A DNA stretch of 64,000 nt from Sinomonas sp. R1AF57 (GTDB lineage: Bacteria; Actinomycetota; Actinomycetes; Actinomycetales; Micrococcaceae): the NCBI RefSeq assembly GCF_002224485.1, contig NZ_CP022463.1, forward strand, positions 512,422 to 576,421, given 5' to 3'. A program made the translations under genes and the position numbers. Position 1 is the stretch's first letter, and the number at the start of each line of letters is the position of its first letter. Positions 8,087 through 35,349 of this stretch are shown in pieces. The notes beneath the pieces are model-generated. The model had not been told where the DNA came from. It made no database searches and saw nothing but the letters and a program-made list of their open reading frames with translations.

Positions 8087-8266
8087 AGGCGCTCCAAAGC
8101 GAACCCCCAGCGTCCGCATTGGACATGTACAACATTAGCGGATATGCCACCTGCGCGGCGCGGAAAGAAGCGATGCCTTTGGGGCGCTGCTGCCGCCCCT
8201 GAGGCCTCAGGATCTGGCTAGAATGCGTCAACGCGGCGTCGGAGAGTCACTGGGGGGAATGAATAC

Positions 8267-8548
8267 GTGGACGAGGCAATGAGGCGCTATCTCTCCAGGC
8301 AGATCACAGGGCTCGACCGCATGAGAGAACCGCGCGACGAGGAGTTCGCGGCGGCCATTGTGGAACTCGAGGCATTCTGTGAGGAAGGCGGCGGCGTCCC
8401 CGACTGGAGATCGAGCGACCCGGTCGAAGCGAGTCTCGGTTCGTGGTTGGAGGGCCAGCGGGATGTTGAACGCCGCGGCGTGCTGTGCGAGAAGCGGCGC
8501 GCGCTGCTCGAAGGCGTGCTGGGGCCGCGGTGGGTGAGCCCAAGCTGA
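8267..8548 (+). CDS. Hypothetical acidic small protein
   Basis: The 93-residue protein is acidic, with a predicted helical start (RYLSRQITGLDRMREP) and a short central motif FCEEGGGVPDW. It is not recognised. The GTG start at 8267 has a GGGGGG tract 9 nt upstream. Codon usage resembles the neighbours (G/C at third positions), which supports coding. It ends 40 nt before the stop of the convergent gene at 8588. Confidence 0.5.
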   Translation: MDEAMRRYLSRQITGLDRMREPRDEEFAAAIVELEAFCEEGGGVPDWRSSDPVEASLGSWLEGQRDVERRGVLCEKRRALLEGVLGPRWVSPS

Positions 8549-25430: not shown

Positions 25431-28211
25431 ATGCGCCGACGCGCGCCTAAACACCGAGCCGTGCCCGCCAAGAAGCGCCGCCCCGACATGGGGCACCGGC
25501 ACAGCGCCGCGCAGCGCGGACTGACCTCGGCCGCCCTCGTCCTGACCGTCCTGGCAACCCCCGTCCTCACCGGCCAGCCGGCCCAGGCGGCCACACTCCC
25601 GGCCGCCGTCACGACCGCGTTCCCGCAGCGGGCCGCCCAGCTCTCCGTCACCCTCGTCACACTGCAGACCCGCGACAAGACCGCCGCCGACGCCGCAGCG
25701 CTCGACGTCAACGCCTACCGCAACGCCATCTCCTCGGCCAGCACCTACTGGTCCTCGATGTCCTCCGGGCGCATAGGCATGCGTGTCGACCGGGTCCTCG
25801 CGGGATTCCGCACCTCCGCGTCCTCCGCCGACGACTTCACCGCCATCATGGACACCGTTGCCCGCGAGATCGGCTGGGCCGCCGGAGGGAACAGCGTCCT
25901 CATCCTCGCCGTCCCCCGCGACGACGTCATGGTCTACGGCTCCGGCGGAAACCTCGGCGCCGGCTGGGCCGCCGGGCAGACCAGCGGCCGCATCCTGCTG
26001 CCCCGCCCGTCCAATTTCACCGGCCCCGTCACGGCGCACGAGGTCGGCCACGTCCTCGGCCTCGGCCACGCCAACACCCTCCAGTGCAGCAACGGTGCCG
26101 CCGACTCCGCCCGCGGCGCAGGCCGCTTCGCGGACGCATCGTGCAGCACTCGCGCCTATGGCGACCGGACCGACCTCATGGGCGTCTCCCAGTGGAGCCA
26201 GCCCCACCTGAACTCCTACCTGTACGAGTACGGCGGCTTCGGGCGCGGCGACGAGATCACCGACGCCGGGACAGCCGGAGCCACCGTCACCTATACCCTC
26301 CTGCCTTGGGCAGGGACAGCCTCGCACCGGGCCCTGAAGTTTAAGGACCCGGCCACCGGGGAGTGGTACTACGTCCAGTTCAAGACCAACAACGGCTACG
26401 ACGCCCCGACCGCAATCGGCGGCAACCGCGGGATCGAGATCATCAAGGGCGGCCTCGACGAGAGCGAATCGCTGCTCATCCCGCCTTCCACGCTCCCGTT
26501 CGCCGGGGTCTACGCCAGCAGCCTGGCCTGGCAGGCCGGGCAGACCTTCACCACCGCCGGCGGCGCCCGTGTGACCGTTAACTCCGTCGGGGCGGATACT
26601 GCAACTGTGACCATCGCCGGGAAGAACGCGCCGCCCGCGGCCGTCGCCACAGTGATCGACACCAAGGCCGCCCAAGCCGGGCTCGGCTCCGCCACCAGCG
26701 ACTTCGGCGCGATCCGCAGCGGCGGCTTCTACCGCATCTACCAGCGCGGCGCCGTCGTCTGGACTTCCTTCACCGGCGCGCACATCTCCACCGGCGGCAT
26801 CCGGACCGCCTGGGCCAGGAACGGCTACGAGAACGGCCACCTCGGCTACCCCACAACGGACGAGATCGGCGGCCTCAAGGGCGGGGGCGTCTACCAGATG
26901 TACGAGGGCGGGGCGATCATCTGGAACCCCACCCTTGGTGCCTTCGAGTCCAGCGGGACCATCCGCGCCGCATGGACCCGCAACGGGCTCGAGAACGGCA
27001 AGTTCGGATACCCCACCAGCGACGAGGTCCGCGGCCTCAGGGGCGGCGGCTCCTACCAGGCCTTCCAGGGCGGGCTCATCATGTGGTCCCCTACCACCGG
27101 GGCACACGAGTCCCTCGGCGGCATCCGCAACGCCTGGCAGCGCACCGGATTCGAGGACGGCTACCTCGGCTACCCCACCACCGACGAGATCGGCGGCCTC
27201 AAGGACGGGGGCGTCTACCAGATGTACCAGGGCGGGGCCATCCTCTGGTCACCCAAGACAGGGGCACACGAGTCCGGCGGCGCGATCCGCGCAGCATGGG
27301 CCCGGTACGGGCTCGAGAACGGCAGGTTCGGGTACCCCACCGGCGACGAGGTCCGGGGCCTGCGCGACGGCGGGTCCTACCAGGCCTTCGAAGGCGGGCT
27401 CATTATGTGGTCCCCGAAGACCGGGGCACACGAGTCGGTCGGCGCCATCCGGAACGCCTGGCAGCGGGTCGGGTTCGAGGACGGCTACCTCGGCTACCCC
27501 GCCACCGACGAGATCCCCGGCCTGAAGGACGGCGGCGTCTACCAGATGTACCAGGGCGGGGCGATCGTCTGGTCCCCCAAGACCGGGGCGCACGAGTCCG
27601 GTGGCGCGATCCGTCAGGCGTGGGCGAAGGCAGGGTACGAGAACGGGAACCTCGGCTACCCCACCAGCGACGAGTACGCGATCTCCGGCGGCAAGGCGCA
27701 GGACTTCCAGGGCGGGCGCATCGAATGGCGGCCCGGCTCGGGCACGACCGTCGTCGACCCGCTCCGCTCGGAAGGCAGCGCCGGACCCACGATCCCCGCC
27801 GCCCCGGCGTCCGGGACCGAGAGCGTCGCGCAGGTCCAGTCCATGGTCCGGCAGACCGCCACCCAGATGGGCGTCGACCCGGCCCTGGCCCTTGCCGTGG
27901 CCGAGCAGGAGTCCAGCTTCCGGCAGAACGTCACCTCGTCCGTCGGGGCGATCGGCGTCATGCAGATCATGCCGGCCAACCGGGACTGGCTCGCCGCGCT
28001 CTCCGGCCGGCCCGCACTGGACCTGCGCAAGACCTCCGACAACATCGCCGCCGGCGTCGCGATGCTCCGCTGGCTGCGCGCCCAGGCGCCCTCCCTCGAC
28101 GTGGCCGTCGCCGGCTACTACCAGGGCCTCGGGTCGGTCCAGTCCAGAGGCATGTACGAGGACACCAAGGTCTACGTCGCGCAGGTCAAGGCGCGCATGG
28201 CCAAGTACTGA
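25431..28211 (+). CDS. Secreted metzincin-like protease / LGFP repeats / lytic transglycosylase
   Basis: The 926-residue protein has an N-terminal signal peptide (Arg-rich start, hydrophobic LTSAALVLTVLATPVLTG, AQA cleavage-type site near residue 50). Residues about 55-290 form a metalloprotease-like domain with the zinc motif HEVGHVLGLGH (first His is residue 203) and a later DLMGVSQWSQPH that can serve as a Met-turn. Residues about 405-775 are LGFP repeats: five exact 54-residue units (456-725) flanked by two degenerate ones. The C-terminal ~115 residues are an SLT domain (ALAVAEQESSFRQNV, catalytic Glu827; GAIGVMQIMPANRDW; AGYYQGLGS). LGFP repeats are thought to hold proteins to the mycolata/actinobacterial cell wall. 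It is probably an exported wall-bound enzyme cutting both protein and glycan. A close paralogue lies at 32572. Confidence 0.9.
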   Translation: MRRRAPKHRAVPAKKRRPDMGHRHSAAQRGLTSAALVLTVLATPVLTGQPAQAATLPAAVTTAFPQRAAQLSVTLVTLQTRDKTAADAAALDVNAYRNAISSASTYWSSMSSGRIGMRVDRVLAGFRTSASSADDFTAIMDTVAREIGWAAGGNSVLILAVPRDDVMVYGSGGNLGAGWAAGQTSGRILLPRPSNFTGPVTAHEVGHVLGLGHANTLQCSNGAADSARGAGRFADASCSTRAYGDRTDLMGVSQWSQPHLNSYLYEYGGFGRGDEITDAGTAGATVTYTLLPWAGTASHRALKFKDPATGEWYYVQFKTNNGYDAPTAIGGNRGIEIIKGGLDESESLLIPPSTLPFAGVYASSLAWQAGQTFTTAGGARVTVNSVGADTATVTIAGKNAPPAAVATVIDTKAAQAGLGSATSDFGAIRSGGFYRIYQRGAVVWTSFTGAHISTGGIRTAWARNGYENGHLGYPTTDEIGGLKGGGVYQMYEGGAIIWNPTLGAFESSGTIRAAWTRNGLENGKFGYPTSDEVRGLRGGGSYQAFQGGLIMWSPTTGAHESLGGIRNAWQRTGFEDGYLGYPTTDEIGGLKDGGVYQMYQGGAILWSPKTGAHESGGAIRAAWARYGLENGRFGYPTGDEVRGLRDGGSYQAFEGGLIMWSPKTGAHESVGAIRNAWQRVGFEDGYLGYPATDEIPGLKDGGVYQMYQGGAIVWSPKTGAHESGGAIRQAWAKAGYENGNLGYPTSDEYAISGGKAQDFQGGRIEWRPGSGTTVVDPLRSEGSAGPTIPAAPASGTESVAQVQSMVRQTATQMGVDPALALAVAEQESSFRQNVTSSVGAIGVMQIMPANRDWLAALSGRPALDLRKTSDNIAAGVAMLRWLRAQAPSLDVAVAGYYQGLGSVQSRGMYEDTKVYVAQVKARMAKY
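26799..27608 (+). repeat. Five in-frame 162-bp LGFP repeat units
   Basis: Units start at each IRxAW motif and are exactly 54 codons long (810 nt in total). They alternate between type A (GVYQMYxGGAI) and type B (GSYQAFxGGLIMW) in the order A-B-A-B-A, so the true unit of duplication appears to be about 324 bp. Each unit has the family core LGYPTTDE or FGYPTSDE. Confidence 0.85.
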
Positions 28212-28275
28212 CCGCCGGCCCGTCGCCCGGCAGGGCGCATAGAAGTACATACCGACACCATCAGAGAGGGGTTCT

Positions 28276-28352
28276 TGGAGCCCCCTGCCGGATTCGAACC
28301 GGCGACCCTCTGTTTACAAGACAGATGCTCTGGCCAACTGAGCTAAGGAGGC
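28276..28352 (-). tRNA. tRNA-Thr (anticodon TGT)
   Basis: On the minus strand the sequence runs GCCTCCTTAGCTCAGTTGG, then the anticodon arm TCTGT-CTTGTAA-ACAGA with anticodon TGT, then GGTTCGAATCC and the acceptor partner AGGGGGC followed by T and an encoded CCA. All four stems pair. It reads ACA codons. It lies 65 nt after the first LGFP protein gene and 92 nt from the XRE gene stop. Confidence 0.96.
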
Positions 28353-28443
28353 GCGGCGACCGCGCAGGCTGTGCCTGCGGCGTTGCACCGAACCAGACTA
28401 GCGCCTCACGTGTCCCTGTCGGGAATTGGGCTGACGCGCAGAG

Positions 28444-28872
28444 TCAGCGGTGCTCGCGGAGGGTGCGGTCGATGATGTCCCTGATCTCGAGCAGGGTCTC
28501 CACGGAGAGGTCGGAGGTCAGGGTGCGGGCGGCGAAGGACTTCACCTCTGCCTCGCGCATCGTGCGGAGCAGTTCGAGCTGGGCTCCAACCCGGTCCGGG
28601 ATCTCCGGCTCTGGGTCCGTGAGGTACGTGATGGGCACTCCGAACATGTCGGCCAGGGCGTGAAGGAGCTTGGTGTCGGTCGTGAGGGGGCCGGTCCCAG
28701 CACGCATGTAGTGCCACCGCTGTCTCGAGACCTGGGCGCCGCGTTCCTCGACTCCACGTTTGATCTCCGGGAACTGCGGCCGCTCTCCTCTGCGCTCGGC
28801 GGCGGCGATGTCCAGCAGGGTGTTGAGCCGCTGGGCCAGTGCCGCCGCGGAGGGCGGTAGCGGTTCAGGCAT
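28444..28872 (-). CDS. XRE-family helix-turn-helix regulator
   Basis: The 142-residue protein has an N-terminal helical region (AAALAQRLNTLLDIAAAERR) and a Cro/CI-type DNA-binding domain (VSRQRWHYMRAGTGPLTTDTKLLHALADMFGVPITYLTDP), followed by a C-terminal helix (VETLLEIRDIIDRTL). It is transcribed away from an ImmA/IrrE-family peptidase gene. In known ImmR/ImmA-type pairs the peptidase destroys the XRE repressor, so this is the likely target. GAGGAGGT precedes the ATG at 28872. A TTAT-C-ATAA dyad (28895-28903) sits over its putative -10 (TATGAT on the minus strand) and may be an autoregulatory operator. Confidence 0.88.
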   Translation of the reverse strand: MPEPLPPSAAALAQRLNTLLDIAAAERRGERPQFPEIKRGVEERGAQVSRQRWHYMRAGTGPLTTDTKLLHALADMFGVPITYLTDPEPEIPDRVGAQLELLRTMREAEVKSFAARTLTSDLSVETLLEIRDIIDRTLREHR

Positions 28873-29043
28873 GTGGTACCTCCTCGGTCTTGATTATCAT
28901 AACGATTTCTCGCTTTACCCGCCTTTCCCGGGGCCCAGGCGAATCATGCCCGGCCGAGGAGGCGAATGACCGCGTCTGCGGTGAGTGCGGGCGGAGGTTA
29001 GTCTTGGTCTCATGCGAGAGAATTTGCCGGGCGGAATGGCGCC

Positions 29044-29550
29044 GTGAGGAGGCGCCTCCTGCGTGATGGCTTGGGTCCTGTGCGGAGGGAAGCCGCCGAG
29101 GCTGTTTCCCGACTCCGCCTCGGTTCTGCCTTCGGCTTCCAAGAGCTGGTGGATTCGGTGGCCCGATACCGCGGCACCCGGCTCGATATCAGGGCTGTGC
29201 CGAGCCTCGGCAAAGGTGAGGTCAGTGCACTGTGGCTGTCCATGCGCGACGTCGAGCTGATCCTTCACGTGGACACCGATTCCGAGCTTTATCGGGAACA
29301 GATAATTCTGCACGAGCTCGCCCACATGATTCTGGGACATGATCTTCAGGAAACACGTTCCATCGCGCAGAATTCCCTTCTTCCCGATCTCCCGGCGGCT
29401 TTGATCCAAGGTGCGCTCGCCCGCTGCCGCGAGCGGAGCCGAATTGAACTCGCCGCTGAGGTGCTCGCCGATCTGCTCGCGAAAGGCCTGAGTGCCTCGC
29501 GTGTGCCGTCCGGAGGGGAACCGCTCAAGTTCTCAGAAGTGTTCGGATGA
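29044..29550 (+). CDS. ImmA/IrrE-family metallopeptidase
   Basis: The 168-residue protein has the zinc motif HELAHMILGH (first His at residue 90) preceded by LYREQIILHELA, as in ImmA/IrrE peptidases, which cleave XRE repressors or act as toxin/stress switches. The upstream part (FGFQELVDSVARYRGTRLDI) fits the family's N-terminus. The GTG start at 29044 has GGCGGAA upstream. The stop overlaps the next gene (ATGA), linking it to the membrane protein. The divergent XRE gene is the presumed substrate; cleavage is inferred. Confidence 0.85.
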   Translation: MRRRLLRDGLGPVRREAAEAVSRLRLGSAFGFQELVDSVARYRGTRLDIRAVPSLGKGEVSALWLSMRDVELILHVDTDSELYREQIILHELAHMILGHDLQETRSIAQNSLLPDLPAALIQGALARCRERSRIELAAEVLADLLAKGLSASRVPSGGEPLKFSEVFG

Positions 29551-30554
29551 CGGTGCACGTTGTGGCTGCAGCGGCTCTGGGCCTCCTGGCTCTGCTCCGT
29601 CTGCCTGCACTCGTGAGGCGGGGAGACTGCGTCTTCTTCGTCGCAGTCTTCGCAGCAGTCGCCTCGGTCCTGGACGTTGCCCCGATTGCAACGGCGGTGG
29701 ACGCGGCGGTGGGCGTGCGCGGGATGGCCGCCCTTCTGGGCGGGCTGCTCATGATCGCGGCCTTCGGCGCCATCCGCCTGTCCGTCCTGAGAGCAGTCGT
29801 CCCCGAGGCGGACGTCCAGGACGAAGTGCAGCGAGCGATTCTCCTCACCTGGGTCGCCGCCGCGATGTACCTCGGCTCCTTCCTCTGCATGTGGCTCGTC
29901 GCGCCGGGCAGCCCAGGAGCCGGCGAGGCACTCCTGACCAGGGTCGCCAAGGAATCGGATGTCGGAGCGTTTGTCTGCGGGACCGTGCTGAACGGCTTCT
30001 TGGCGCTCGCCTCGCTCTCCGTCCTGCGCGCGTGCCTCCGACACGTGCCCGACATGGCGTCCACGGCCTTCCGCATGGGCTTTGCCTGCGTGGGCGCAGG
30101 CAGCGTGCTGCGCATCGGATCCCAGGCTGTGCAGGAAGCGAGGGCAGTCCTCATCATGCTCGGCCGACCCGAGCTCGGCGCCGTCCCCCTGGACTCGCTG
30201 AGCCTCGTCCTCGGCGGGACCTCGATGCTGATGATGGCACTCGGGCTGACCCTCCCGGCACTGCTCCGCCATCTCGCCCCTTTGGGCGTTCGTCACCGTC
30301 TCCAGCTCCTCAGGCTCGTCCGCGTGTGGCGTCGCACCACCGCGGTGTATCCAGAAGTGGTGGTCCACCGCAGCCTGACGCCGGCCCACGGAGTGTTCTC
30401 GGGAGAACCGAGGGCATACCTGCATCGGGCCGTCGTGGAGCTCATCGACTGCGAAGTGCTTTCGGGCGGACGGCTCTTCACCGACCGTGAGCGCGGTGCG
30501 CTGTGCCAGGCAGAGTCGATGCTGTATGCGTCACCTGTCAGGGTTGCGGGATGA
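29547..30554 (+). CDS. MAB_1171c-type putative membrane transporter
   Basis: The 335-residue protein has about seven membrane helices in its first 235 residues (VHVVAAAALGLLALLRLPAL; CVFFVAVFAAVASVLDVA; GMAALLGGLLMIAAFGAI; AILLTWVAAAMYLGSFLCMW; VCGTVLNGFLALASLSVL; FRMGFACVGAGSVLRI; SLSLVLGGTSMLMMALGLTL), then a cytoplasmic domain with LRRTTAVYP-like and VVHRSLTPAHGVF, RAVVELIDCEVL. This matches the actinobacterial MAB_1171c family, often encoded with an ImmA/IrrE peptidase and an XRE regulator. Its substrate is unknown. It overlaps both neighbours by 4 nt. Confidence 0.82.
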   Translation: MTVHVVAAAALGLLALLRLPALVRRGDCVFFVAVFAAVASVLDVAPIATAVDAAVGVRGMAALLGGLLMIAAFGAIRLSVLRAVVPEADVQDEVQRAILLTWVAAAMYLGSFLCMWLVAPGSPGAGEALLTRVAKESDVGAFVCGTVLNGFLALASLSVLRACLRHVPDMASTAFRMGFACVGAGSVLRIGSQAVQEARAVLIMLGRPELGAVPLDSLSLVLGGTSMLMMALGLTLPALLRHLAPLGVRHRLQLLRLVRVWRRTTAVYPEVVVHRSLTPAHGVFSGEPRAYLHRAVVELIDCEVLSGGRLFTDRERGALCQAESMLYASPVRVAG

Positions 30555-31144
30555 CGCAGCGCAGGAGCGGACTCCGGATTCTCGGGTACGTGTGCGTCAC
30601 GGCCACCCTGACGTTCACGGGGGTGTCAGCTCTTCAGGCCGTGGTCAACCCGCCCCTGAAGCAGCTCGAGCAACTGTGGCCGCCTCAAGAGGGCGCGCCT
30701 CCTGCCCCGCTGCCCACGAGCGCGGCTGAGGATGCCGGAAACGGCCACATGGCGCCCACGCCTGAGGGGGACTCGCCGGCAGCCCAGCTGCCGTGGTGGG
30801 CGTGCGACGCCGGTTGCTCTCAGCCGCCGGCCACGCCGTCGGGCCATGCCGACGGCGCGGCTGCTGGTCCCGGATCGTCGCGGGACAAACGGAGCCACGA
30901 GAAGTCCGACGTCGACCCGGGACTCACCTCGGACGAGGGCGCCGGGCCGACGGCTCGCCCGGAGCCGCGGGCCCAGGACGGGAATTCCGCCGGCAAGTCG
31001 GCGCCGCCAGCCTCTGGGCGGGACGACCGGGGCACGGGGGAGGCGACGAGGCCCGACGACGAGGGCGTGGGCCGGGCGCCGAGCGGAAAGCCGCTGCCGA
31101 GCCAGGGGACCCAAGGCCAGGGGCAGTCCGACTCATCCAGATGA
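30551..31144 (+). CDS. Exported Pro/Gly-rich low-complexity protein of the ImmA operon
   Basis: The 197-residue protein begins with a basic stretch and one hydrophobic segment (ILGYVCVTATLTFTGVSALQ, residues 10-29), a signal peptide or anchor. The rest is disordered, rich in Pro, Gly, Ser, Asp and Arg, apart from a hydrophobic patch with two Trp and two Cys (WWACDAGC, residues 82-89) that stands out. No family is recognised. It overlaps the MAB_1171c-type gene by an ATGA and ends 12 nt inside the 3' end of the convergent XRE-TPR gene. It may be the cargo or an exported partner of the membrane protein. Confidence 0.7.
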   Translation: MTQRRSGLRILGYVCVTATLTFTGVSALQAVVNPPLKQLEQLWPPQEGAPPAPLPTSAAEDAGNGHMAPTPEGDSPAAQLPWWACDAGCSQPPATPSGHADGAAAGPGSSRDKRSHEKSDVDPGLTSDEGAGPTARPEPRAQDGNSAGKSAPPASGRDDRGTGEATRPDDEGVGRAPSGKPLPSQGTQGQGQSDSSR

Positions 31145-32377
31145 CGTGCGGAACGAGGTGCGTGTTTCGACTGCAGCGCTGATGCATTCGTTGACCCTGT
31201 TCCATGCCCCGGCGTCGGCGAAGTGCTGCCGTGCGGCGTCGAGCTGTTCGAGCGCGTCGGAGGTGCGTCGGAGGGTCCCGAGCGTGCGCCCGTAGAGGAG
31301 CGCGACCTCCCCGGCGGGGTAGGGCCCGAGGTCGAGGGCTTCCGGTGCAAGGTCCTCGAGCCGCTCCGCGGCTGCGGCGGGGTCTCCCGAGAGGTAGAGC
31401 CACTGGGCGCGGATGAGCGCGACATCGAGATGGTCGCGCCGGCTGCCGCCAACGATCTCGAGGGACATCTCCGCCCGTTCAAGGGCGGCGAGGGTAGCGG
31501 GCTCGACGCGCCCCGCTGCGAGCCGCGCGGCGGCGGTGGCTTTATTGAACTGGGCCCAGAGCCCCAGGTCCTGGGCGGGTGAGAGGAGCGCCGCGGCGCG
31601 CTCGTGACGGTCGACTCCCTCTTCGCAGTCGCTGCGCATGAATGCGACATTGCCGATCGCCCACTCGACCTGGCCGGCGAGCTGGGGCGATGTGCCGTCG
31701 ACGAGCGAGGCGAGGTGCCGGCAGTGCTCCCACGCCTCATCGAGGTGCCCACGGTCCGCCAGCGCGGCGACCAGGACATTGAGGGCGCTGACGTGGGTCG
31801 TCGACGAGTGCGCGTACCGTTCGGCCAGTGCGACGGCTTCCCGGGCCCGCTGCACCGCGGCATCCAGCTGGCCGAGTCCGTGGCACGAGGCAGCGAGGAG
31901 CTGCTGTGCCCGGCCAGCCAGAGAAGGGGACTCTGCGACGATCGGGTGGCCGAGGAGCTGATCGGCGAGTCGCTGGCACTCGGCGAGGTCTCCCTGCTTG
32001 AGGGCGCACTCGGCCTGCATGTAAGTCATGTTCCACCAGTCGCTGTGGTGGCCGCTCGCCAGGGCCAGCTGGGCCGCCGCCTCAGCATGCGACGCTGACC
32101 GGGCGTAGTCCCTCCCGTCCCACGCGTCGCGGGCACTGAGCTCAGCGAGGACGAATTCGGCGTCGTGGGCACGAGCCTCCTGGAGTGGGTCGAGGTCGCT
32201 GGGGGCGACTTTCAGGCGGTCTGCCAATTCGGCGAGGACGCCGGGAGTCGGTTCACGAAGGCCGGACTCGAGCATCGAGATATAGACCGCGGAGCAGAGG
32301 TTCCTGCCGAGTTCGGCCTGCGACAGGCCTCGCTCCATTCGCTTCGACTGCAGGCGAGCGCCGAATCGGACACCCAT
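31133..32377 (-). CDS. XRE regulator with TPR-like C-terminal domain
   Basis: The 414-residue protein has an N-terminal Cro/CI HTH (FGARLQSKRMERGLSQAELG, then YISMLESGLREPTPGVLAEL, residues about 4-65) and a long all-helical domain of TPR-like repeats (ARSASHAEAAAQLALASGHH; AECQRLADQLLG; AAVQRAREAVALAERYAHSS; ALEQLDAARQHFADAG). HTH-TPR regulators of this shape often respond to peptides or protein partners. GGAGGAG lies 7 nt before the ATG at 32377; the frame is open further upstream but without an RBS. It is divergent from the second LGFP protein gene, with ACATGT sites in the gap. Confidence 0.88.
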   Translation of the reverse strand: MGVRFGARLQSKRMERGLSQAELGRNLCSAVYISMLESGLREPTPGVLAELADRLKVAPSDLDPLQEARAHDAEFVLAELSARDAWDGRDYARSASHAEAAAQLALASGHHSDWWNMTYMQAECALKQGDLAECQRLADQLLGHPIVAESPSLAGRAQQLLAASCHGLGQLDAAVQRAREAVALAERYAHSSTTHVSALNVLVAALADRGHLDEAWEHCRHLASLVDGTSPQLAGQVEWAIGNVAFMRSDCEEGVDRHERAAALLSPAQDLGLWAQFNKATAAARLAAGRVEPATLAALERAEMSLEIVGGSRRDHLDVALIRAQWLYLSGDPAAAAERLEDLAPEALDLGPYPAGEVALLYGRTLGTLRRTSDALEQLDAARQHFADAGAWNRVNECISAAVETRTSFRTSSG

Positions 32378-32462
32378 GCTCAACTCCTCCGCACGCTGGT
32401 ACAGGGCTTGTGGCGCGGATTGGCCCTTTTCAACGGCTGACTCCGGCGACGCCTGTTCGGGA

Positions 32463-32522
32463 ACATGTATATCATTCCTTTTACATGTAAAAGATCCTCT
32501 GGAGGTAGGGGCGTTTACATGT
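32463..32522. promoter_or_regulatory. Three ACATGT sites including a 14-bp palindrome (putative operator)
   Basis: ACATGT occurs at 32463-32468 (GAACATGTAT), within the perfect palindrome TTTTACATGTAAAA at 32479-32492, and in TTTACATGT at 32514-32522. The centres are 20 and 34 bp apart. The region is markedly A/T-rich against the genome background and lies between the divergent XRE-TPR regulator and the second LGFP protein gene. The regulator is the likely binder. No similar sites precede the first paralogue. Confidence 0.65.
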
Positions 32523-32571
32523 CCGCCTTTCACTGATCTCGGGCGAGAATTCGCCCAACCGGAGGACACGC

Positions 32572-35349
32572 ATGCGCCGTCGCACCCCCAAGCACCGCGC
32601 CGAGCGCACGAAGCGTCCTGCGGCTGCCCCGCCCCGGGCCGCGGCAGCCGTTGCCGTGGCAGTGGCGCTCGCCGCCGTCCAGCAGGGCACGACCGCGAAC
32701 GCCGCTCAGGCCGCGGCCTCCGCACAGGGCTCGGCGCCGTCCGTACTGGCCGCCGCCTACCCCCAGCGCACGGCCCAGATCAGCGTCACCCTGGTGACGC
32801 TGCAGACACGGGACAAGACCGCTGCGGATGCTGCATCACTGGATGTGGCGGCCTACCGCACCGCGATCCAGTCGGCCAGTGCGTACTGGTCGTCGATGTC
32901 GGCGGGCAGGATCGGGCTGCGCCTCGACCGCGTCCTGGCAGGCCAGCGGACTTCAGCCGCCTCCGGGGACGACTTCACGGTCATCATGGACACGGTTGCA
33001 CGGGAGATCGGATGGACCCCGGGGACGGCCAACGTCCTGATGCTGGCGATTCCGCGCGACGACGTCGTCGTGTACGGCGCGGGAGGGAACCTCGGTGCGG
33101 GATGGGAGTCGGGGCAGACGAGCGGGCGCATCCTCCTCCCGAGGCAGTCCAACTTCACGGCTCCGGTGACGGCCCATGAGATGGGGCATGTCCTCGGGCT
33201 CGGGCACGCCAATACCCTCCAGTGCACCAACGGGGCAGCGGACTCGACACGGTCCATCGGGCGCTTCAGCGACAGCGCCTGCAGCACCCGCGAGTACGGC
33301 GACCGCACCGACCTGATGGGCGTGTCGCAATGGAGCCAGCCGCACCTGAATTCCTACCTCTTCGAGTACGGCGGATTCGGACGCGGAGACGAAGTCCTGG
33401 ACATCGGCACTCCGGGGTCCCCCACGAGCTACATCCTCACGCCGTGGGCGGGCACGGGCCCCAGGAGGGCCGTGAAGTTCCGGGACCCCGCGACCGGTGA
33501 GTGGTACTACCTGCAGTTCAAGGCCCCGACGGGGTACGACGCTCCCACCGCCCTCGGCGGCAACCGCGGTGTAGAGATCATCAAGGGCAGTCTGGACGAG
33601 ACGGAGTCGCTGCTCATCCCTCCGAGCACCCGCCCGTTCGCCGGCTACTACGCCACGGATCTGGCCTGGCAGCCCGGCCAGACCTTCACCACGGCCGGCG
33701 GGGCCAGAGTCACCGTCGACGCCGTCGGCGCGACCGCGACCGTCACCGTCGCCGCCAAGAACGCGCCGCCAGCCGCGGTAGCGTCACTCATCGACGCGAA
33801 GGCCGCCCAGGCCGGGCTGGGTTCTGCCTACGGCGACTTCGGCGCCATCCGCAGCGGCGGCTTCTACCGCATGTACCAGAGGGGTGCCGTGGTCTGGACG
33901 GCGGTCACGGGAGCGCGCGTCTCCACAGGCGCGATCCGGAGCGCCTGGCAGCGGCAGGGCTTCGAGAACGGCTACCTCGGGTATCCCACTACGGACGAGA
34001 TCCGGGGCCTGCGCGACGGCGGCGTGTACCAGATGTACGAAGGGGGCGCGATCGTCTGGAATCCCCTCACCGGAGCGTTCGAATCCGGCGGTGCGATCCG
34101 AGCGGCATGGCTGAGGTTCGGGCTCGAGAACGGCAAGCTCGGGTACCCCGTCACCGACGAGATCCGGGGCCTGCGCAACGGAGGCTCCTACCAGGCCTAC
34201 CAGGGCGGCGTGATTGTCTGGTCGTCCACCACGGGGGCTCGCGAGTCCGGCGGGGGAATCCGTACCGCGTGGCAGCGGCAGGGCTCGGAGAACGGCTACC
34301 TCGGGTACCCCACGACGGACGAGGTCAGGGGCCTGCGCGACGGCGGTGTGTACCAGATGTACCAGGGCGGTGCCATCGTCTGGTCCCCCCAGACGGGCGC
34401 ACACGAGTCCGCCGGTGCGATCCGGGCAGCATGGCTGCGGTTCGGCCTGGAGAACGGCAAGTTCGGCTACCCCACCACGGACGAGGTCAGGGGCCTGCGC
34501 AACGGAGGTTCCTACCAGGCCTACCAAGGCGGACTGATCATGTGGTCGCCCACGACCGGAGCGCATGAATCGAGCGGCGGCATCCGCGCGGCGTGGCAGC
34601 GGCGCGGCTTCGAGAACGGCTACCTCGGATACCCGACCACCGACGAGATCCGGGGCCTGCGCGACGGCGGCGTGTACCAGATGTACCAGGGTGGCGCGAT
34701 CATCTGGTCGCCGAAGACGGGAGCGCACGAGTCGGGCGGAGCCATCCGCCAGGCATGGGCGGGACTCGGCTATGAGGGCGGCACTCTCGGCTACCCCACG
34801 AGCGACGAGTACGCCATCACGGGTGGCGTGGCCCAGGACTTCGAGGGCGGTCGCATCGAATGGCGCCCAGGTTCCGGCATATCCGTCGTCGATTCGCTCC
34901 GGGCAGGAGGAAGCACGGGCACGATCATCGCCGCGCCGACTCCGACGGCGACGGAGTCCCCGGCACAGATCCAGTCGATGGTCCGCCAGACCGCCTCCCA
35001 GATGGGGGTCGATCCCGCTCTCGCGCTTGCTGTGGCCGAGCAGGAGTCGGGCTTCCGCCAGAACGTCACCTCATCCGTCGGGGCGGTGGGAGTCATGCAG
35101 ATCATGCCGGCGAACAGGGACTGGCTCGCCAGCCTCACCGGCCGGCCGAACCTCGACCTGACGAAGACGGCGGACAACATCGCCGCCGGCGTGGCCCTGC
35201 TCCGCTGGCTCCGCTCGAACGCGTCCAGCCTCGACCAGGCGCTCGCCGGCTACTACCAGGGCCTCGGCTCGGTGCAGACCCGAGGCATGTACGAGGACAC
35301 CAAGACCTATGTCGCACAGGTCAAGGCCCGCATGGCGAAGTTCGTCTGA
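32572..35349 (+). CDS. Paralogous secreted metzincin-like protease / LGFP repeats / lytic transglycosylase
   Basis: The 925-residue protein is a close paralogue of the one at 25431, colinear over its whole length. It has a signal peptide (AAAAVAVAVALAAV), the zinc motif HEMGHVLGLGH (first His at residue 202), DLMGVSQWSQPH, then LGFP repeats with exactly five 54-residue units and degenerate edges, and a C-terminal SLT domain (AVAEQESGFRQNV; GAVGVMQIMPANRDW). The N-terminal 50 residues and the interdomain linkers differ most, while zinc and SLT motifs are kept, so both copies are probably active. GGAGGACACGC precedes the ATG. Unlike the first copy it has its own divergent regulator and an ACATGT-rich control region. 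Confidence 0.9.
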   Translation: MRRRTPKHRAERTKRPAAAPPRAAAAVAVAVALAAVQQGTTANAAQAAASAQGSAPSVLAAAYPQRTAQISVTLVTLQTRDKTAADAASLDVAAYRTAIQSASAYWSSMSAGRIGLRLDRVLAGQRTSAASGDDFTVIMDTVAREIGWTPGTANVLMLAIPRDDVVVYGAGGNLGAGWESGQTSGRILLPRQSNFTAPVTAHEMGHVLGLGHANTLQCTNGAADSTRSIGRFSDSACSTREYGDRTDLMGVSQWSQPHLNSYLFEYGGFGRGDEVLDIGTPGSPTSYILTPWAGTGPRRAVKFRDPATGEWYYLQFKAPTGYDAPTALGGNRGVEIIKGSLDETESLLIPPSTRPFAGYYATDLAWQPGQTFTTAGGARVTVDAVGATATVTVAAKNAPPAAVASLIDAKAAQAGLGSAYGDFGAIRSGGFYRMYQRGAVVWTAVTGARVSTGAIRSAWQRQGFENGYLGYPTTDEIRGLRDGGVYQMYEGGAIVWNPLTGAFESGGAIRAAWLRFGLENGKLGYPVTDEIRGLRNGGSYQAYQGGVIVWSSTTGARESGGGIRTAWQRQGSENGYLGYPTTDEVRGLRDGGVYQMYQGGAIVWSPQTGAHESAGAIRAAWLRFGLENGKFGYPTTDEVRGLRNGGSYQAYQGGLIMWSPTTGAHESSGGIRAAWQRRGFENGYLGYPTTDEIRGLRDGGVYQMYQGGAIIWSPKTGAHESGGAIRQAWAGLGYEGGTLGYPTSDEYAITGGVAQDFEGGRIEWRPGSGISVVDSLRAGGSTGTIIAAPTPTATESPAQIQSMVRQTASQMGVDPALALAVAEQESGFRQNVTSSVGAVGVMQIMPANRDWLASLTGRPNLDLTKTADNIAAGVALLRWLRSNASSLDQALAGYYQGLGSVQTRGMYEDTKTYVAQVKARMAKFV
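33934..34743 (+). repeat. Five in-frame 162-bp LGFP repeat units (second copy)
   Basis: As in the first paralogue there are exactly five 54-codon units (810 nt) alternating type A (GVYQMYxGGAI) and type B (GSYQAYQGGxI) in the order A-B-A-B-A. Equal number and order in both proteins imply that the array existed before the gene duplicated and has not since expanded. Confidence 0.85.

What the first reader, a model, noticed from the sequence alone, without database searches (positions are those of the whole stretch)
32463..32522. ACATGT operator cluster between the XRE-TPR regulator and the second LGFP gene
Three ACATGT cores, one in a perfect 14-bp palindrome TTTTACATGTAAAA, occur within 60 bp of an A/T-rich divergent control region. 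In such a GC-rich genome this is very unlikely by chance. The first paralogue lacks them, so the two copies are probably expressed under different conditions.
Basis: partly seen in the sequence, partly recalled or inferred. Interest (0 to 1): 0.6.

Follow-up and report, generated by a model that had tools for sequence, protein, structure and literature searches.

The report
ACATGT control boxes, genus-wide regulon
A 60-base stretch between two genes of a soil actinobacterium carries three copies of a DNA switch that recurs in front of related genes, some of them flagellar, across its genus, and the protein that reads it is probably not the neighbouring regulator but a small one encoded a few kilobases away.

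Summary
In detail: three ACATGT cores at 32463, 32483 and 32517, the middle one in a 16-bp perfect palindrome. Not chance: 0 of 20,000 shuffles reproduce it, and the genome's only other close ACATGT pair is inside a gene. The boxes belong to a genus-wide motif, TTKKACATGTMMAA: 110 sites against 16 for a reversed control in 15 genomes. It is densest in the 9 genomes with flhA and lies before LGFP proteases, a FliA-like sigma factor, an M78-peptidase gene and small envelope proteins. LGFP homologues beside the flagellar genes of three relatives carry boxes at similar positions. An EspR-like XRE (window 28447-28872) has orthologues (69-71%) in all 9 and in none of the 5 other genomes; it is my preferred reader, unproven. 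In passing: the XRE-TPR family has a divergent secreted propeptide with GNWPDP repeats in 80 of 80 named loci, a candidate RRNPP-type pheromone system in Actinobacteria; the window copy has none.

The parts
32463..32468 (.). box S1, AACATGTATA, degenerate flanks; overlaps the -10-like TATACA read towards XRE-TPR
32478..32493 (.). box S2, CTTTTACATGTAAAAG, 16-bp perfect palindrome; core 32483-32488
   Evidence: exact 14-mer once in the genome
32514..32523 (.). box S3, TTTACATGTC; core 32517-32522, 55 nt before the LGFP2 ATG
   Evidence: homologues have a box 59-60 nt before the ATG
32466..32471 (-). TATACA (in TGATATACA), -10-like element for XRE-TPR, 14 nt from the centre of S2
   Evidence: sequence; inference
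32534..32539 (+). TGATCT at the -10 position for LGFP2, 14 nt from the centre of S3; poor match to a -10
   Evidence: sequence; inference
31133..32377 (-). XRE-TPR regulator, 414 aa; ATG at 32377 chosen by homology; probable target of the boxes
   Evidence: HTH_3; AlphaFold model mean pLDDT 84.7; alignments
32572..35349 (+). LGFP2: 7 LGFP repeats + SLT transglycosylase domain, N-terminal metalloprotease-like part (Pfam M43 below its cut-off), 925 aa; probable target
28444..28872 (-). small EspR-like XRE, 142 aa; candidate reader of the box
29044..29550 (+). M78 (ImmA/IrrE-like) peptidase-like protein, HELAH motif by eye; candidate antirepressor
   Evidence: Pfam M78 below cut-off (15 of 22 bits); conserved neighbour in 9 relatives
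29547..30554 (+). MAB_1171c-like membrane protein (NCBIfam 58.9 bits, cut-off 100)
8119..8132 (.). further box TTGGACATGTACAA upstream of a 93-aa ORF (8267-8548 +) with a borderline helicase-associated domain
   Evidence: HA 28.1 bits, cut-off 28.4
25431..28211 (+). LGFP1, paralogue of LGFP2 without boxes

Best explanation
The 60-bp stretch is a real divergent operator module. Its three boxes are copies of a palindromic motif, TTKKACATGTMMAA, shared by a regulon in the genus (Sinomonas by its named relatives; inferred). Shown: the motif is enriched genus-wide and lies before homologous genes in several species. Shown by sequence only: S2 stands 14 nt before a TGATATACA element aimed at the XRE-TPR gene and S3 stands 14 nt before TGATCT aimed at LGFP2; the same 14-nt geometry recurs at LGFP and M78 promoters of relatives. 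Inferred: a dimeric XRE protein binds the boxes over the -35/spacer region and controls both genes at once, most simply as a repressor, with the sites helping each other. Inferred: that protein is the EspR-like XRE at 28447-28872, and the M78 peptidase beside it relieves repression by cutting it, as IrrE does with DdrO. In flhA-bearing relatives the system touches the flagellar genes. This genome has no flhA and keeps the XRE, the peptidase and a few boxed genes.
For: Motif TTKKACATGTMMAA (up to 1 mismatch): 94 sites in 9 genomes with flhA (control 10), 12 in 5 others without it (control 6), 4 in the own genome (control 0) (flhA); 9 against 5 genomes, exact p 0.0005 if genomes were independent. 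Shared targets: LGFP in 3 relatives; the 209-aa gene at own 3749526 and its homologue beside that LGFP (53%); a lipoprotein-like gene in own, G008 and G013 (48-55%); M78 and a FliA-like sigma gene in others. EspR-like XRE, 69-71% identical, in 9 of 9 flhA genomes and in 0 of the 5 others at that level (G011 33%). M78, MAB_1171c and XRE follow one another on one strand in all 9; the XRE lies on flhA's contig, 31-63 kb away, in 6 of 9, on another contig in G004, G005 and G007. A box core lies 60-72 nt before the M78 start in G001, G007 and G010, an ACGTGT variant 58 nt before it in G005, G006 and G009. TANNNT starts 13-15 nt after the centre in 13 of 41 chosen boxes, 0-2 in windows not overlapping it. 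Profile match to EspR, E 3e-7.
Against: No binding data. The known EspR consensus TTTGC[TC][GA] (PMC3315491, passages) is not the box. The own XRE/M78 intergenic (28873-29043) has no box, nor has the stretch before M78 in G004, G008 and G013. None of the 5 own boxes tested has TANNNT at 13-15 nt; 6 of the 13 hits come from variant-centre boxes that I added, and several hits are homologues of one another. The refined motif was drawn up from sites in these same genomes, so one search is partly circular; the unrefined TTTKACATGTMAAA gave 94 against 11. The genomes are related, so the presence pattern may rest on few events. Extra XRE-TPRs also lean to box-rich genomes (6 of 10 against 0 of 5). 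Repressor rather than activator is a guess. M78 Pfam score is under its cut-off.
Confidence: 0.5

Rival explanations
1. The XRE-TPR protein itself binds the boxes, controls its own gene and LGFP2, and may answer to a peptide.
For: Divergent adjacency; XRE proteins often self-regulate (general knowledge); half-sites TTTTAC and GTCAA also occur, with 6-7 bases between, in the conserved propeptide promoter beside its family; one other XRE-TPR (G008, L040/L210) has a box about 200 bp before its likely start; extra XRE-TPRs in 6 of 10 box-rich and 0 of 5 box-poor genomes.
Against: 4 of 9 box-rich relatives show no second XRE-TPR at E 1e-60; core copies sit beside a different element in 80 of 80 named loci and also occur in the 5 box-poor genomes; boxes recur away from XRE-TPR genes.
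Confidence: 0.22
2. Another, unidentified regulator kept with the flagellar regulon reads the boxes.
For: The motif tracks genomes with flhA; I tested the genome distribution of only two regulator families.
Against: The own genome lacks flhA yet keeps boxes and the EspR-like XRE.
Confidence: 0.23
3. The cluster is an A/T-rich accident or a promoter-strengthening element without a dedicated reader.
For: The 60 bp are only 38% GC; ACATGT alone is not rare in the window.
Against: 0 of 20,000 shuffles; 110 sites against 16 control sites; boxes before homologous LGFP genes.
Confidence: 0.03

Closest known systems
IrrE/DdrO and its RDRM operator (Deinococcus; PMC5552922, abstract and passages)
   Same: XRE regulator with an M78-type peptidase (family names of that pair recalled); short palindrome in or near promoters of many genes; some genes carry two sites
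   Different: Box TTKKACATGTMMAA rather than the 17-bp RDRM (whose letters I recall, not read); regulon here flagellar/envelope rather than DNA repair; XRE is EspR-like; cleavage untested
EspR of Mycobacterium tuberculosis (PMC3315491, passages)
   Same: Sequence relative; binds near genes of cell-wall function; cooperative binding at several sites
   Different: EspR consensus TTTGC[TC][GA]; about half its sites intragenic; no flagellar link in the passages seen
RRNPP(A) peptide receptors (PlcR, NprR, Rap)
   Same: HTH plus TPR superhelix; core family members have a divergent secreted propeptide, mostly with repeats; fold matches NprR, Rap and PlcR structures
   Different: Actinobacterial; no sequence match to them found; window copy has no propeptide; top fold matches are eukaryotic LGN TPRs

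Membership tests
Palindromic operator of a regulon | Motif enriched over a composition-matched control | tested here: met
   94 against 11 sites, 110 against 16
Palindromic operator of a regulon | Upstream of homologous genes in several species | tested here: met
Palindromic operator of a regulon | Bound by a named regulator | not testable with these tools
   needs gel shift or footprint
EspR family (window 28444-28872) | Sequence relationship to EspR | tested here: met
   profile E 3e-7; single-sequence E 4e-4
EspR family (window 28444-28872) | Target consensus TTTGC[TC][GA] | tested here: inconclusive
   the box TTKKACATGTMMAA is not that consensus, but that this protein binds the box is itself unproven
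IrrE/DdrO-type switch | M78 peptidase beside an XRE regulator | tested here: inconclusive
   conserved order in 9 of 9 but M78 score 15 bits against a cut-off of 22
IrrE/DdrO-type switch | Peptidase cuts the repressor | not testable with these tools
   needs biochemistry
RRNPP (window XRE-TPR) | N-terminal HTH and C-terminal TPR superhelix | tested here: met
   HTH_3; all-helical model with TPR matches; no TPR Pfam hit at 0.001 in the window copy, several in two core copies
RRNPP (window XRE-TPR) | Cognate secreted propeptide gene adjacent | tested here: not met
   none in the window by motif nor divergent to it; the only exact GNWPDP-coding site in the genome is at the core paralogue
RRNPP (Micrococcaceae core copies) | Cognate secreted propeptide gene adjacent | tested here: met
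   80 of 80 named loci kept; secretion judged by eye, no signal-peptide program run
RRNPP (window XRE-TPR) | Sequence relationship to known RRNPP receptors | tested here: inconclusive
   single-sequence search of PDB chains at E 0.01 found only an immunity repressor; no profile search run
RRNPP (Micrococcaceae core copies) | Receptor binds re-imported peptide | not testable with these tools
   needs biochemistry

The most novel reading that the evidence does not exclude
The XRE-TPR beside the cluster belongs to a Micrococcaceae-wide family that is an actinobacterial peptide-pheromone system: a divergent secreted propeptide releases a short peptide, (A/V/T)(I/V)GNWPDP(M/A), read inside the cell by the TPR regulator. 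The window copy is an orphan receptor placed under the ACATGT regulon, so this 60 bp is where pheromone reception and a flagella/envelope programme meet, in a species that has lost its flagella.
Probability: 0.4. Interest if true: 0.85.

Novelty: new member of a known kind. Interest (0 to 1): 0.57.

Why it matters
It turns a single palindrome into a testable regulon, with a motif, a target list and two candidate regulators, that links an EspR-like XRE/M78 module to flagellar and cell-envelope genes in an actinobacterial genus. It also exposes a candidate peptide-pheromone receptor family in Actinobacteria, where the RRNPP survey I saw in passages (PMC10075063) says signals are typically small molecules.

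Tried and rejected
XRE-TPR as box binder: demoted. sigma-70 scan of the intergenic: no promoter by consensus, so all -10 statements rest on eye and alignment. Hairpin in the LGFP2 leader: z -1.06, not significant. LGFP2 as strict one-to-one orthologue of the flagellar LGFP: not supported, the two own copies are closest to each other (74%, against 67-68% for LGFP2 and 66-70% for LGFP1 to the relatives' flagellar and second groups, N-terminal 410 aa), so I call them homologues. ACATGT pair at 183456: inside a 554-aa ORF. Three of seven exact TTTACATGTAAA sites in the genus are one locus in three close genomes. In one search five of 40 sites fell inside an ORF by my mechanical caller (L204, L212, L224, L225, L230); four look like start-extension artefacts, L225 may be true coding; for several of the 40 no gene was called nearby. 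Rows dropped: one search used 41 boxes, leaving out secondary sites of clusters (one search shows 49 rows), and added 6 variant-centre boxes; among the 35 with ACATGT, 7 have TANNNT at 13-15. Match lists were cut off by the tool; 40 listed sites were fetched. In one search, 249 stretches encode relatives and only the best 80 were kept and read. Papers: no GNWPDP-type peptide in print in this library (one unrelated hit); searches listed no actinobacterial RRNPP system by title (25, 15, 2 and 10 listed of 60, 45, 2 and 218). Motif strings: 49 papers, 20 listed, those titles concern p53 and other unrelated work; 29 not seen. One search listed no Sinomonas flagellar regulator paper in its top 10 of 4,221. 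PMC10075063, PMC3315491, PMC5552922: passages; PMC12700828 (no passage for actinobacterial terms) and PMC12565409 (one reference line) by term search only; all others search listings.

Full report
What is there. The 194-bp intergenic between the XRE-TPR start (ATG 32377, minus strand) and LGFP2 (ATG 32572) holds three ACATGT cores at 32463, 32483 and 32517. The middle core is in a 16-bp perfect palindrome. Three cores in 60 bp never arose in 20,000 dinucleotide shuffles of this intergenic. Genome-wide, ACATGT pairs 10-40 bp apart occur three times (reversed control 0): two are this cluster and the third is inside a 554-aa ORF. The short core alone is not rare.

Not a local oddity. In the own genome TTTACATGTAAA recurs once, at 3749468, 55 nt before a 209-aa gene without a Pfam family; near-copies stand before a lipoprotein-like gene (788767), an aldo/keto reductase (3751930; Pfam) and, inside the window at 8119, a 93-aa ORF with a borderline helicase-associated domain. 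Across 15 genomes of the genus TTTKACATGTMAAA (up to 2 mismatches) has 94 sites against 11 for the reversed control, and the refined TTKKACATGTMMAA (up to 1 mismatch) 110 against 16; the refinement was drawn from sites in the same genomes. The nine genomes with flhA, which I take as flagellated, hold 8-13 sites each, the five others without it 1-4, and the own genome, also without flhA, 4.

Footprints. LGFP homologues in G004, G008 and G013 carry two boxes, 105-106 and 59-60 nt before the start; the window's lie 109, 89 and 55 before. Those LGFP genes follow flhA and a FliA-like sigma gene (sigma-70 regions 2-4 in G013). The divergent gene there is 53% identical to the own 209-aa gene that has the other exact palindrome (G013). 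The lipoprotein box is shared with G008 and G013. Boxes also stand before the FliA-like gene (three in G007, L229; a pair 30 bp apart at its start in G004, G008 and G013), before fliM in G006 (TTTACATGTAAA, L052), before M78, and before small LGFP, TM2, DUF4190-like and helicase-associated-like genes. Names without a family search are my reading of the sequences.

Geometry. Among 41 promoter-proximal boxes that I chose, 13 have TANNNT starting 13-15 nt after the box centre, against 0-2 in three-base windows not overlapping it; 6 of the 13 are variant-centre boxes that I added, and several are homologues of one another. In the window S2 is followed at 14 nt by TATACA (in TGATATACA) towards XRE-TPR, and S3 at 14 nt by TGATCT towards LGFP2. 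Neither fits TANNNT, so the own promoters are weak or changed.

Who reads the box. The window XRE-TPR has no relative above 59% identity in 14 other genus genomes. Their core copy sits beside a propeptide gene with a different promoter element, and 4 of 9 flhA genomes show no second XRE-TPR at E 1e-60. The small XRE at 28447-28872 has 69-71% orthologues in 9 of 9 flhA genomes and none at that level in the 5 others (G011 has a 33% match). Its profile finds EspR and nothing else in the PDB at E 0.1. In all nine M78, MAB_1171c and XRE stand in this order on one strand; in G013 I saw this at the edge of the flagellar genes, and in 6 of 9 the XRE is on flhA's contig. In the own genome XRE and M78 are divergent, with no box between. 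Co-occurrence is not binding, the genomes are related, and EspR's published consensus differs.

The pheromone lead. A scan of named genomes gave 80 loci (Sinomonas, Arthrobacter, Paenarthrobacter, Pseudarthrobacter and one Micrococcaceae record), the best of 249. All 80 have a small divergent ORF with a signal-peptide-like start and 1-6 copies of WPDP; all 80 hold GNWPDP, and 46 have two copies. Behind it lies a conserved TTGACA-17-TTTAC promoter, 80 of 80 by pattern. Pfam and NCBIfam have no family for the propeptide tested. The window protein folds as HTH plus TPR superhelix; eukaryotic LGN TPRs match best, Rap (4gyo, Z 23.4, 4.6 A over 329) and NprR (5dbk, Z 22.4, 5.2 A over 343) follow. 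TPR superhelices resemble one another widely, so the fold alone shows no function. The window copy has no propeptide nearby.

Verdict. Real operator cluster, part of a genus-level regulon that my two searches did not find in print; reader of the box probably not its neighbour. Ordinary in kind, useful in content, with a more surprising pheromone lead at its edge.

Noticed in passing
L010 (own genome 2888.8-2890.4 kb) and L060-L139: Core XRE-TPR paralogue with a divergent secreted propeptide bearing GNWPDP repeats, 80 of 80 named Micrococcaceae loci kept; other genera show AVGIWPNS, VGDWPHS and SVGWWPH. The own copy keeps one intact repeat.
   Followed up: partly
window 25431-35349: Two LGFP paralogues flank a block (EspR-like XRE, M78, MAB_1171c-like, a secreted proline-rich ORF, XRE-TPR), most of whose parts have relatives near the flagellar genes of other species; the own genome has no flhA. 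It may be the remains of a lost flagellar locus.
   Followed up: partly
L141-L143, upstream of the LGFP genes: A second LGFP group carries TTGGAC-NN-GTCCAA with other centre bases, 14 nt before TAGGAT; the box may tolerate its two central bases.
   Followed up: partly
L048, L049, L050 (G013, G008, G004): TTTTACATGTAAAA conserved near a small helicase-associated-like ORF and a MerR-type gene.
   Followed up: no
window 32541-32556: GGGCGA-GAAT-TCGCCC stem just before the LGFP2 ribosome site; folding not better than shuffles (z -1.06).
   Followed up: yes
L006 8469 and 10932 (own 3749.5 and 3751.9 kb): Two boxes 2.5 kb apart, before a 209-aa gene and an aldo/keto reductase, with a LysR-like gene and a transporter-like gene between (by eye).
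   Followed up: partly
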